The position numbers were made by a program, and so were the translations under genes. The notes below the pieces were generated by a model that had not been told where the DNA came from, did no database searches, and worked only from the letters and a program-made list of their open reading frames with translations. 64,000 bases of DNA from Limonium bicolor (taxonomy: Eukaryota; Streptophyta; Magnoliopsida; Caryophyllales; Plumbaginaceae). The stretch lies in assembly GCA_023374045.1 (NCBI GenBank), contig CM041776.1, positions 119,245,000 through 119,308,999 on the forward strand, given 5' to 3'. Positions 9,675 to 40,465 of the stretch are shown here, piece after piece. Every line of letters begins with the position of its first letter. Position 1 is the first letter of the stretch.

Positions 9675-10414
9675 TCAATATTGCCTAAACATCAAATTTA
9701 ACCGTCCAGGTTTCAAATGGGTAGTATTTACTAATGTTGATGGGGTTGTATTCAACTTAATGCTCTTTATCCCATGGTACACTAATCTAGATTTTCCACC
9801 AAATATCAATACATCTCCTAACTTCAAAATAATCCTTCTCGCCTTGTCCATTCCCTTCTGATCACCGTACAAAAACTCTACATCATCTCCAATGGAGAAT
9901 GATACAACTGGTATCCCTCTGGTAATTGACTCAGGTGTCTCATCTCGGTCCTGGTGTAATCCAAGTTTTCCCCCTTTATCATAAAAGTTTGCAATACAAA
10001 TATCTGCCTTCATGTCTGGTATAGGGTTGGTCTCTAATTGTTGTGCAATCTTGACCACTTCTGTCACTAAAATTTGAAAAATGTCGGGTATCCTAGGAAC
10101 TCGTGTTCCATCTATTTTTCTAACTACTTGATACAACCTAGTTTGTGGATCCCACTCCTTACCCATACACATCATATATAATTTAAGTTTTGATCCACTA
10201 CCATATCCTGGAGTGTAAAATCCTCCAAGGCCTATTCCCAAAGTTCTACATTCATTTACAATAGTTATTTGTTCATCTAGAGTTAAATATTGCTTGAGTA
10301 GAATCATGCCGGGTCGAAGTACTTGGCATTCTCTCTCTGGATATTCCCGACCTTCGCTCATAGGCTCAGGTGATCTCGGCCCCACAGGTATGGGAAAATA
10401 AATGTCGAAGTACC
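9675..10414 (-). CDS. Element A AlkB-type Fe(II)/2-oxoglutarate dioxygenase exon
   Basis: AlkB enzymes use Fe(II) and 2-oxoglutarate to strip alkyl groups from nucleic acid. An uninterrupted frame of 236 residues from Met at 10385 shows NFYDKGGKLGLHQDRDE with iron ligands His144 and Asp146, His204 in LVYHG, and 2-oxoglutarate-binding Arg228 and Arg234 in GRLNLMFRQY, the family signature. The N-terminal GMILLKQYL and GGFYTPGY blocks resemble, from memory, plant ALKBH1-like proteins. Upstream the frame is open to acceptor TAATAG (exon start 10414), preceded by FDIYFPI, also seen in C and D. The exon ends in its own TAG directly before pol. It is undamaged while gag and pol of A carry lesions. 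Substrate unknown. Confidence 0.9.
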
Positions 10415-10550
10415 CTATTAGGTGAGAGGTTTTCTAAGTTAGGCCTCTCTAAACTTTTATTTCACACAAAACACACACAAGTCTCATCGACTGAATAACT
10501 GTAAACACACATACATAGCATCATGCTTTTGATTTAAGTCCTAGGCTTAC

Positions 10551-11966
10551 CGGTTTCACGCTGAGCGCTAGCCTCAGCGCCTGAAGTTCCCACTGAGTAC
10601 AAGGTGTTTCTACTTGGAACTATCTCCTTCCCCTTCTGACTCTCGGATGAGGATGGTTGTCCTCCCGGTCCCCTAGTATAGGTGTTAGTCTGTGGCGCCT
10701 GACCTCCTCTGGGTCCTCCAGTCTCTGTAGCTGGTGTCCTCTGTGAACCTCTAGCTCCCTTGTATACTCGGCTTGCTGGGTTGGAAAAACATTCATACTC
10801 CCGGTGGCCTTCCTTTTTTGCAATAGCGGCACTCCACCTTCCTGTCTGCGTAGTCTACTCCTGGGTGATCATTTCCACAGCGCTTACAGTAGAAGTGACG
10901 CTGGGTTGGCTTATTGCCTATTGTTTATACAACATGGTTTAGTAAAGGTATAGCTAATAAATATCTTGGTTAAGTAAGAGGTAGGTATCCTTACCCGTAG
11001 GTGGTGCTGATCTCAGTGGCTGTGCATCAATGGTTGGGCCGGTCAGACGAGGGACCTGCTCCTTCGTCTTCTGACCATGGAAATCCTTCCGCCCCTTCTT
11101 CTTATCAAAGAATCTTGTGTTGAAGGTTTAGGTTAGCGACCAAACTAAGTGTAGGTTATATATGGGTACTCCTTCTGAAGTAAAGGTTTCTTACTTCCCC
11201 TTTTTGTAGTAACCGCCAGAGGTTGCTCCACTATCATCTCCTTCAGTACTCTTCCTCTTCTTTCCCTGCGCCTCCTCTCTAGACTGAAGCATGAACTCTG
11301 TTGCCGATGCTGCATCATAACATTCTTGTAGGGTAGCGAAACGTATTGCTTCCATAGCGCCCTGGATGCGAAATTGCAAACCTCCCCTAAACTTTTGAAT
11401 CTTCACAGAGTCGGAGTAGTCGACTCCTGGTATGTAGTCCAACAAGCTGATGAACCGCGCGTAGTACTGGTCGACTGTTTGGCTCCCCGGGATTAAGGTC
11501 TCGAACTCTTGCCTTTTTCTCTGCTTTAAGTGTTCGGGGTAGTATTTCTCTTGCATCACCTCCAGAAACGCTGTCATCCAAAGTTCGGTGTAGCTCTATG
11601 GTGGCCCTCCACAGACCGCCACCAAATATCAGCTGCGTCCTTCAGGTTGTACGGGGCGATGTCGACCTTCTGGTTTTCTGGTACTCTCACAGCTCTGAAG
11701 GCCTTCTAGTGCTCTACAATGAACTTCTCCAGTGCGGCGGGGTCTGGTTCCCCTGAGTAAGTAGGCACTCTAGCGTCTGCAACGCTCTTCAACCAGTTGG
11801 TTTCTCTGGGCTGCGGCGGGTGGGGTATGGCTCCCGTAAGTTGAGCTCCAAGCTGCTGCGCGAAGGCTGCCATGGCCACTGCTAGGCCTGGTACTTCTGG
11901 AACATCCGCCGGTGTCTCGCCACCGCGTCCGCTGCTGCCTCCACGTGGTCTTCCTCTTGTCGACAT
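10551..11966 (-). pseudogene. Element A gag, multi-exon, with two zinc knuckles
   Basis: It starts MSTRGRPRGG at 11966. The capsid-like middle (YYPEHLKQRKRQEFETL, SQTVDQYYARF) is the retrotransposon gag domain. Likely introns are 11114-11194 (GTAAG donor) and 10918-10994, the latter just before the nucleocapsid exon; a third, 10415-10550, leads to AlkB. The nucleocapsid exon has CKRCGNDHPG and then HREYECF, but a one-base shift near 10810 separates the two knuckles. Other lesions: TAG at 11706-11708 where C has Gln (MQKAF), and a frameshift near 11590. The knuckle pattern C-x2-C-x3-H followed by C-x2-C-x4-H-x4-C matches D and C. Gag packages the RNA in intact relatives; this copy cannot. Confidence 0.8.
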
Positions 11967-12152
11967 CTATAAGATAGTATACTATTATTTCTACTCGGTT
12001 GCTACACCGTTTTTCAAACACAATCACAAACATGTAAGAAAGCTAACTACTAGCAATAAAATATTCCTAGAATTTTCTAGATCACGAATCCTCACAGACG
12101 TTTCCCGTATCCCAATATTCCTATGCTCATGTTCTTGACTCAGTATCCTTCA

Positions 12153-39100: not shown

Positions 39101-39573
39101 GCATTGCCATGGCGGTGATGATCTTAGTCGAAGGCTCTCTGGGCCTCTGGCGGATATTGTTACCCCAGACGGACTCCTGAGCAGCAATCTATGCTCGGCG
39201 CAGAGGATACGTCCCTTGTGCCGCTCCAACCAGTTCATCCCGAAGATAACATCAAATCCTAGCTTACTGAACTCAATGAAACTGACTGGGAAGTCTTCCC
39301 CCTTAATTCTGATGGTGGCTCCTCGGTAGTAACGAGTGCAACGAACCTTCTCCTTAGACGGGAGCGTAACCGTGAAGTCGGGTAGCTCATCAGCGTCTAG
39401 CCCCAACCTGCTCGCAAATGATGCAGAGACAAAGGTATGCGAGGCCCCTGAGTCGAAGAGAACTGATGCCTCAATCCCATTGATCGGAAAGGTGCCGGTG
39501 AGGATAGTACCGCTAGCGTCGGCCTGTGCCTCTGTGAGTATGCTTAGTGCACCTTCCGTACCGAGTCCATAAC
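36200..39573 (-). pseudogene. Element D pol: protease, RT, RNase H, integrase with chromodomain-like C-terminus
   Basis: Protease-RT exon proposed from 39573 (acceptor AATTAG). Protease LFDSGASHTF; RT KKKDGSLRLCIDYREL and VVVFIDDILIYS. The long clean segment 36200-38395 holds RNase H Asp128, Glu165, Asp190 and Asp233; integrase zinc ligands His316, His323, Cys353, Cys356; catalytic Asp386, Asp447 and Glu483 (35 residues between the last two); a GPY block (621-623); and a chromodomain-like tail (RILDSK, VKVLW, EEATWE, 684-720). This places it in the Tekay/Del chromoviruses, whose tail may guide insertion into heterochromatin. At least three one-base frameshifts (near 38390, 38836 and 39100) inactivate it. 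Confidence 0.92.
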
Positions 39574-39728
39574 CTAATTGTGTTCACAAGCTCCATGAGT
39601 ATTGATGGTATAACAAGAGTCGTAATCAATTATATGAACAACACTGTTATTTTATTCATGACCATCCTGTTTACAACATGTGCTTCAATCTTACATCTCA
39701 TTTCTCATCTCATTCTAACATTACATGG

Positions 39729-40465
39729 CTAATATTGTCTAAAGGTTAGGTTTAATCTTCCTGGTCTCATATGCGTCGCATTGATTACTGCTGACGGTGC
39801 TGTATTCAGCTTGATTCTCTTATTCCATGGTATAACATCCTTGATTCTCCTCCCAAATTAATACATCACCTGACTTAAGTACTATCTTATCTGCACGGTC
39901 CGCACGCTTCTGCTCGCCGTATAAAACTCCGCATCATCTCCAATGGACCAAGACACTACGGGTATCCCTCTTTCGAGAGACTCCGTTGTCTCGTCCTTAT
40001 CCTGGTGTAGTCCCAGTTTCCCATCTTTTTCGTAGAAGTTTACAATGCAAATGTCTGGCTGGATGTCTGGAATCGGTTCAGCTTCCAACTGCTGAGCGAT
40101 TTCCATGACTTGTGTAATAACTGGATGGAACTCTTCGGGTATTCCCGGTGGTGAGACTCCATCTTGCTCCCTTGTGGTTTGGTAATTCTTGGCATACGGA
40201 TTCCAATCCTTGCCCAAGCTCATCATCTTTAATTTCATCCTTGCTCCCCCTGGGTACTCCGGTGTGTAAAAACCTCCCGGTCCCATTCCTAGTTGATTGC
40301 ATCTCCTGATGATGGCTATTTGTGCTTCGGGTGTCAGGTATCCCCTTAATAAAATCATACCTGGGCGGATAACCTGACATTGTTCGGTTGGAAAGTGTAT
40401 GGTTTCGATGTCGGTGTGCTCCGGGTTAGATGTAGATGGTATAGGGTAGCAGATGTTGAATCTTC
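39729..40465 (-). pseudogene. Element D AlkB-type dioxygenase exon, frameshifted
   Basis: Starts after acceptor CTTTAG with FNICYPI, as in A and C. GMILLRGYLTP, GGFYTPEYPGG and NFYEKDGKLGLHQDKDE (the H-x-D iron ligands) are intact. A lost base near 39925 after GDDAEF and a second shift near 39860 take the remaining His and Arg segments out of frame; their codons are recognisable on the minus strand, ending in FRQY and a stop at 39729-39731. The stop position relative to pol equals that in A and C. This copy is inactive but confirms that AlkB was an ancestral part of this element family and not a private insertion. Confidence 0.88.

What the first reader, a model, noticed from the sequence alone, without database searches (positions are those of the whole stretch)
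9675..40465. An AlkB demethylase domain is a standing part of a Ty3 chromovirus family (elements A, C and D)
Seen: three diverged elements each have an AlkB-type frame between gag zinc knuckles and protease (9675-10414 minus, 28473-29188 plus, 39729-40465 minus). A and C keep both iron His, the Asp and both Arg (HQD, YHG, RLNxxFR). D keeps HQD and then frameshifts. Known: AlkB domains occur in cellular repair or RNA-modification enzymes and in some plant RNA viruses; I know of no established Ty3 example but cannot search. Inference: a plant ALKBH1-like gene was captured (FRQY ending and GMILL/GGFYTPGY blocks as recalled). It could protect or unmark element RNA or cDNA, or counter host methyl marks.
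Basis: partly seen in the sequence, partly recalled or inferred. Interest (0 to 1): 0.96.

Follow-up and report, generated by a model that had tools for sequence, protein, structure and literature searches.

The report
Retrotransposon that splices on a demethylase
A widespread family of jumping genes in this plant genome carries an exon related to plant ALKBH1 demethylases, which genome copies show joined in frame to its coat protein, likely by alternative splicing, and which would let the element strip methyl marks from its own RNA or DNA copy.

Summary
Three Ty3 elements in the window carry an ALKBH1-type AlkB domain between gag and protease, at the stated places. In this genome all 150 scored (best) matches are full length and 149 lack an internal stop; 20 of 20 sampled loci have protease-RT just downstream. 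New here: gag ends in a phase-1 splice donor with a stop 3-10 codons beyond, and both the AlkB exon and the protease exon start with phase-1 acceptors, in all five lineages read. I wrote down both spliced junctions first; the genome holds 13 gag|protease and 12 gag|AlkB copies of one lineage (reversed controls 0) and 3 gag|protease copies of a second. So one donor would give Gag, Gag-AlkB or Gag-Pol. Catalytic residues are invariant in 16 of 16 open copies and differences pile up at third codon positions. Closest solved structure: rice OsALKBH1. A precedent exists: orchid Tat/Ogre-like elements with an ALKBH5-type separate ORF (PMC9289625); this is another AlkB subfamily, another Ty3 lineage and another architecture. 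RNA, protein and enzyme activity are untested; the host was not identified.

The parts
9675..10414 (-). element A: AlkB exon, acceptor to stop codon, open
10415..10550 (-). element A: predicted intron between gag donor (last exon base 10551) and AlkB acceptor; stop 5 codons past the donor if unspliced
10551..11909 (-). element A: gag remains with zinc knuckles, broken; predicted intron 2 at 10995-10918; no intron 1 at the LQ|ECY place
8008..9578 (-). element A: protease-RT and start of RNase H; protease exon begins at 9578 (phase-1 acceptor)
12168..12179 (-). element A: primer binding site, tRNA-Met type
26675..26686 (+). element C: primer binding site, tRNA-Met type
27101..28293 (+). element C: gag remains; predicted introns 27581-27647 and 27859-27927; donor after 28293
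28294..28472 (+). element C: predicted intron between gag donor and AlkB acceptor
28473..29188 (+). element C: AlkB exon, acceptor to stop codon, open
29300..30407 (+). element C: protease and part of RT, with an extra predicted intron 29360-29433; matches stop at 30408
39729..40465 (-). element D: AlkB exon, broken (open 40358-39882, then other frames)
40466..40597 (-). element D: predicted intron between gag donor (last exon base 40598) and AlkB acceptor
40598..40938 (-). element D: last gag exon with zinc knuckle; predicted intron 2 at 41019-40939; upstream 41049-41548 reads N
38156..39573 (-). element D: protease-RT in several frames; protease exon begins at 39573
36200..38395 (-). element D: open stretch RT end-RNase H-integrase-SH3-chromodomain

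Best explanation
A Ty3 chromovirus family of this plant genome carries an ALKBH1-type AlkB exon between gag and pol which genome copies show joined in frame to Gag, likely by alternative splicing, and the Gag-AlkB protein is predicted to enter the particle and would remove methyl groups from the element's own RNA or nascent cDNA. Shown: the exon sits in the same place in five lineages; one phase-1 donor at the end of gag faces two phase-1 acceptors (AlkB exon, protease exon); genomic copies exist with exactly the two predicted junctions. Inferred: these copies are reverse-transcribed spliced RNAs, so that unspliced RNA ends Gag 3-10 codons past the donor, one splice gives Gag-AlkB with AlkB's own stop, and the other gives Gag-Pol. 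Inferred: Gag carries AlkB into the particle. Inferred from relatives: it acts on methylated adenine (m6A or m1A in RNA, or the matching marks in cDNA), so that methylated element RNA escapes host sequestration or no longer hinders reverse transcription.
For: Domain, catalytic residues and fold. Same place in A, C, D and in 20 of 20 sampled loci. Phase-1 donor and two phase-1 acceptors in five lineages (A, C, D, L016, L022). Junctions written down first, then found: 13 gag|protease and 12 gag|AlkB copies, reversed-pattern controls 0; 3 gag|protease copies in the second lineage, control 0, in frame into the protease. Exact donor flanks without the normal next base: 31 sites, of which 9 gag|protease and 5 gag|AlkB. 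Recurrent on a tree of 31 copies, 9 changes of splice state. Gag introns 1 and 2 show the same precise loss in some copies. A natural open stretch of 417 codons from the zinc-knuckle region through AlkB in L045. Purifying selection: third-position excess 307 against 109 and 60 in 8 junction-picked copies. Precedents for the chemistry and the splicing: PMC9289625, PMC12786077 passages.
Against: No RNA or protein was seen; only genomic junction copies. The gag|AlkB junction was tested in one lineage only (the search in the second did not complete). Some junction copies are neighbours or amplified, so 13 and 12 are not independent events. 2 of 10 fetched gag|AlkB loci lack most of AlkB. Two of 31 odd donor flanks run into sequence that I could not place. 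Enzyme activity, substrate and particle entry are untested. The number of unspliced donors was not obtained, so the share of spliced copies is unknown.
Confidence: 0.6

Rival explanations
1. The AlkB exon is kept as a splicing device: an alternative terminal exon that lowers Gag-Pol relative to Gag, while catalysis does not matter.
For: The exon competes with the protease exon for one donor; splicing that sets Gag against Pol is known from EVADE (PMC12786077, passages).
Against: All five catalytic residues invariant in 16 of 16 open copies; third-position excess over the domain; fold kept at rmsd 1.3 to OsALKBH1. A decoy exon would not need an active site.
Confidence: 0.1
2. AlkB works as a free enzyme in the cell, through internal initiation or cleavage from Gag, on host RNA or DNA (for instance 6mA at chromatin or silencing-related transcripts), not in the particle.
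For: In the orchid elements AlkB is a separate ORF (PMC9289625); OsALKBH1 is proposed to act on genomic 6mA (PMC7758401, passages).
Against: Phase-matched splice sites and gag|AlkB copies point to a Gag fusion; in copies such as L014 and L022 the first ATG of the AlkB frame lies 33 codons into the stretch, behind the exon start.
Confidence: 0.2
3. The junction copies arose by DNA deletion or recombination, not by splicing.
For: LTR elements recombine often; two of 31 odd donor flanks (L056, L064) run into sequence that could not be placed.
Against: Junctions fall to the base at GT/AG borders and were predicted beforehand; in the 31 sites listed no other acceptor of the fetched element copies is used; the state recurs on the tree; reversed-pattern controls 0.
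Confidence: 0.05
4. AlkB is a passenger: captured once, amplified with the element and without use.
For: Many copies are broken, D among them; the capture seems to be a single event.
Against: Third-position excess in copies not picked by AlkB score; active site kept between lineages whose AlkB is about 65-73% identical in DNA.
Confidence: 0.05

Closest known systems
Phalaenopsis Gypsy_Pa_2799 with paALKBH5-like ORF2 (PMC9289625; parts 1-5 of 7 of the text seen)
   Same: A plant Ty3 LTR retrotransposon lineage with an AlkB-family domain and kept cofactor residues, amplified in its host genome; there m6A demethylase activity in vitro was shown.
   Different: Tat lineage, sister to Ogre, tRNA-Arg primer site and dual RNase H; AlkB of the ALKBH5/9 group in a separate ORF of a 25 kb element. 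Here: chromovirus marks, tRNA-Met-type primer site, ALKBH1-type domain, as an exon between gag and protease joined to Gag.
Plant ALKBH1C/1D-type genes, rice OsALKBH1 (PDB 5xoi, 5xeg)
   Different: Cellular genes; the element copies form one clade apart from them and lack the long N-terminal part.
EVADE and Ogre LTR elements with introns (PMC12786077, passages)
   Same: Alternative splicing of element RNA that changes the gag/pol output.
   Different: No enzyme exon joined to Gag is described in those passages; EVADE is Ty1/copia, Ogre is Tat.
AlkB domains of plant RNA viruses such as Alpha- and Betaflexiviridae (as told in PMC9289625)
   Same: AlkB inside the coding frame of a mobile RNA-based genome; RNA repair proposed.
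   Different: RNA viruses, not retroelements; the link to the replicase polyprotein is recalled; no sequence comparison made here.

Membership tests
Ty3 chromovirus | Protease-RT-RNase H-integrase in this order | tested here: met
   D and 19 of 20 sampled loci; A is seen to the start of RNase H, C to RT only
Ty3 chromovirus | Chromodomain behind integrase | tested here: met
   D: Chromo E 1.6e-4 but 21.9 bits, under the 25.1 cut-off, with SH3_Tf2-1 93.2 bits; the same block read by eye in L022, L024, L028, L014, L009
Ty3 chromovirus | tRNA-Met primer binding site | tested here: met
   16 of 20 loci, A with one change, and C; usage per PMC6317226 passages
Tekay or other chromovirus clade | Placement in an RT tree with reference elements | not tested
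   no reference RT set was at hand
Tat/Ogre lineage (as the orchid AlkB elements) | Second (archaeal-type) RNase H and tRNA-Arg primer site | tested here: not met
   no further RNase H family in D's 731-residue stretch; primer site of tRNA-Met type
AlkB / 2OG-Fe(II) dioxygenase | PF13532 over cut-off with HxD...H and the RxxxxxR residues | tested here: met
ALKBH1-type AlkB | Nearest to plant ALKBH1 genes by sequence and fold | tested here: met
   no ALKBH5 tree was built here
m6A or 6mA demethylase | Activity on a methylated substrate | not testable with these tools
   needs an enzyme assay
Alternatively spliced LTR element | Two products from one donor seen in RNA | not testable with these tools
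   only genomic junction copies were seen

The most novel reading that the evidence does not exclude
A plant retrotransposon lineage packs a nucleic-acid demethylase into its particle as a Gag fusion, made by a three-way switch at one splice donor (Gag, Gag-AlkB or Gag-Pol). A host mark eraser has become a passenger of the particle that cleans the genomic RNA or cDNA before integration, and this was a second, independent capture of AlkB by plant Ty3 elements.
Probability: 0.45. Interest if true: 0.93.

Novelty: new variant of a known kind. Interest (0 to 1): 0.86.

Why it matters
Two plant Ty3 lineages would have taken AlkB erasers of different subfamilies independently, which argues that host methyl marks on element RNA or DNA are a real barrier to retrotransposition. 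Because the enzyme is joined to Gag, the site of action (the particle) and the substrate (packaged RNA or nascent cDNA) become testable. The layout also suggests a chromovirus that uses alternative exons, and it leaves a readable record in the form of spliced genomic copies.

Tried and rejected
Host pseudogene reading: rejected, since 20 of 20 sampled loci have protease-RT just downstream. Origin from a non-seed plant: not supported by the tree rooted on Volvox with Ceratopteris; which seed-plant lineage gave the exon is unresolved (AU test of element copies plus angiosperms as one clade: p 0.499). Searches of IMG/VR and of the prokaryote genome set with P0002: no relative. Direct repeats of 150 bp or more at A, C and D: none; own blast found no LTR pair for C or D and a weak 72% match for A, so they were not dated. 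A possible third acceptor (L056, L064) could not be placed. ALKBH5 is not among the 50 structures shown, which shows nothing by itself. Gag-AlkB fusions elsewhere: in the 120 of 188 matches listed, the best one, P0002, covers 59% of P0183 and the widest cover is 71%. Paper searches; in the listings only the orchid paper has AlkB in a plant LTR element as its subject, one review describes it (passages) and one paper cites it; the library lacks preprints and most subscription papers. Not obtained because the genome search did not complete: host identity (MatK family), P0002 in this genome, the number of unspliced donors, and the gag|AlkB junction in the second lineage. The host ALKBH1D gene was planned and never searched.

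The 150 matches and the 20 loci taken from them are the best-scoring ones and so lean towards intact copies. The codon-position count was therefore made on junction-picked loci (8 of 10; L042 and L044 lack most of AlkB), but against L022, which was picked by AlkB score.
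Full report
What is there. Three Ty3 elements in the window, A (minus), C (plus) and D (minus), each hold a 2OG-Fe(II) oxygenase domain (PF13532) between the gag zinc knuckles and the protease. A and C are open; D is open to 39882 and then loses its frame. In the same genome, G000 (2.92 Gb; eight large contigs), the Pfam search scored 150 of 38,325 loose candidates. All 150 match the whole profile over the cut-off and 149 have no internal stop. 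These are the best scorers, so this shows wide spread but not the share of intact copies. Of 20 loci taken from the 150 with about 5 kb on each side, 20 have protease-RT just downstream and 19 have RNase H-integrase; 16 of 20 have a TGGTATCAGAG primer site. D encodes SH3_Tf2-1 and a chromodomain block, the latter under Pfam's own cut-off. Chromodomain and tRNA-Met primer site are marks of chromoviruses (PMC6317226, passages). The clade within chromoviruses was not tested.

How it is wired. Reading the loci showed introns. In the L022 group, gag intron 1 and intron 2 have GT...AG borders; intron 2 is cut out to the base in L011 and L024, and the spliced intron 1 junction is present in L029, L032 and L037. 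At the end of gag the codon is CCA G|GT: a phase-1 donor with an in-frame stop 3 codons on. The AlkB exon begins AG|GA ACC TTC and the protease exon AG|GC TGT GCA, both phase 1. A, C, D and L016 have different letters but the same phases, with a stop 5, 10, 6 and 6 codons past the donor. So one donor can make Gag alone (unspliced), Gag-AlkB (ending at AlkB's stop) or Gag-Pol.

The test. I wrote down both junctions before searching. Both exist in the genome: gag|protease in 13 places (4 perfect) and gag|AlkB in 12 (3 perfect), with 0 for the patterns read backwards. All 10 fetched gag|protease loci have gag and protease in one frame at the junction; introns 1 and 2 are kept in some and gone in others. 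Of 10 fetched gag|AlkB loci, 8 have AlkB behind the junction and L042 and L044 lack most of it; L045 is open from the zinc-knuckle region through AlkB for 417 codons. A listing of exact donor flanks not followed by the normal base gave 31 sites: 9 gag|protease, 5 gag|AlkB, 15 unspliced donors with point changes or small indels, and 2 that run into sequence I could not place (12 of the 31 were known were fetched). On a tree of 31 copies by their protease region (16 unspliced, 10 gag|protease, 5 gag|AlkB; 9 of the 40 loci L009-L048 dropped for want of the start motif) the splice state changes 9 times, so this is recurrent, though some copies are neighbours or amplified. In the L016 lineage, about 72% identical in DNA, the predicted gag|protease junction is found 3 times (1 perfect; control 0), in frame into the protease. 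The matching gag|AlkB search for that lineage was sent six times and never answered.

Is the enzyme kept. H153, D155, H213, R237 and R243 are invariant in 16 of 16 open copies from four lineages. Between close copies dN/dS is about 0.06-0.12 (dN 0.014-0.044 against dS 0.23-0.39 for three L022-group pairs; 0.007 against 0.057-0.058 for two closer pairs), but these copies were picked by AlkB score. In 8 copies picked by junction alone, differences from L022 fall 109, 60 and 307 on codon positions 1, 2 and 3. The frame has been under purifying selection while the family moved.

Mechanism, shown and inferred. Shown: exon in one place, matched phases, both junctions in the genome. Inferred: they come from spliced RNA that was reverse transcribed; Gag-AlkB is translated; Gag brings it into the particle. 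Inferred from relatives: it removes methyl groups from adenine in RNA or DNA. OsALKBH1 is proposed to act on 6mA (PMC7758401, passages); the orchid element's protein, of another subfamily, removes m6A in vitro (PMC9289625); m6A and AtALKBH9B are reported to control ONSEN mobility (as told in PMC9289625). My choice is that it clears m6A or m1A from element RNA, or the matching marks from cDNA, within or near the particle. RNA against DNA as the substrate is close to even.

What is new. AlkB in a plant Ty3 element is known from Phalaenopsis (PMC9289625, parts 1-5 of 7 seen), where 121 genomes were screened and only two Phalaenopsis species had it. The present family differs in Ty3 lineage, AlkB subfamily, position and likely expression. 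[quoted passage not shown] spliced env-class elements are named in a reference list (PMC11963269). My paper searches listed no paper whose title or abstract start reports a chromovirus with AlkB or a retroelement enzyme joined to Gag by alternative splicing; preprints and most subscription papers are not in that library.

Noticed in passing
window 51155-64000: An LTR element with repeats 51155-53925 and 61225-63992 at 97.6% identity, a tRNA-Met-type primer site at 55585 like that of the AlkB family, and an internal part in which no gag, AlkB or pol match was found: likely a non-autonomous relative.
   Followed up: partly
window 19878-23177 (-): An open stretch of 1099 residues with Transposase_21, Transpos_assoc, DUF4218 and DUF4216: a long CACTA-type transposase (the type name is recalled).
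   Followed up: no
window 29360-29433 (+): Element C has an extra predicted intron inside its protease which the other lineages read do not show.
   Followed up: partly
G000:C1:497439466-497470353: Four AlkB matches with equal score about 10 kb apart, which looks like a tandem array of one element.
   Followed up: no
L056, L064: Two donor flanks run into the same foreign sequence, which matched none of the loci held or the window.
   Followed up: partly
P0002, P0003, P0123, P0124: AlkB proteins of the element type on ENA and Logan contigs of unnamed source: the family probably exists in other plants.
   Followed up: partly
P0122: An Artemisia annua protein with a partly doubled ALKBH1-type domain.
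   Followed up: no
window 41049-41548: A run of 500 N inside element D's gag.
   Followed up: no
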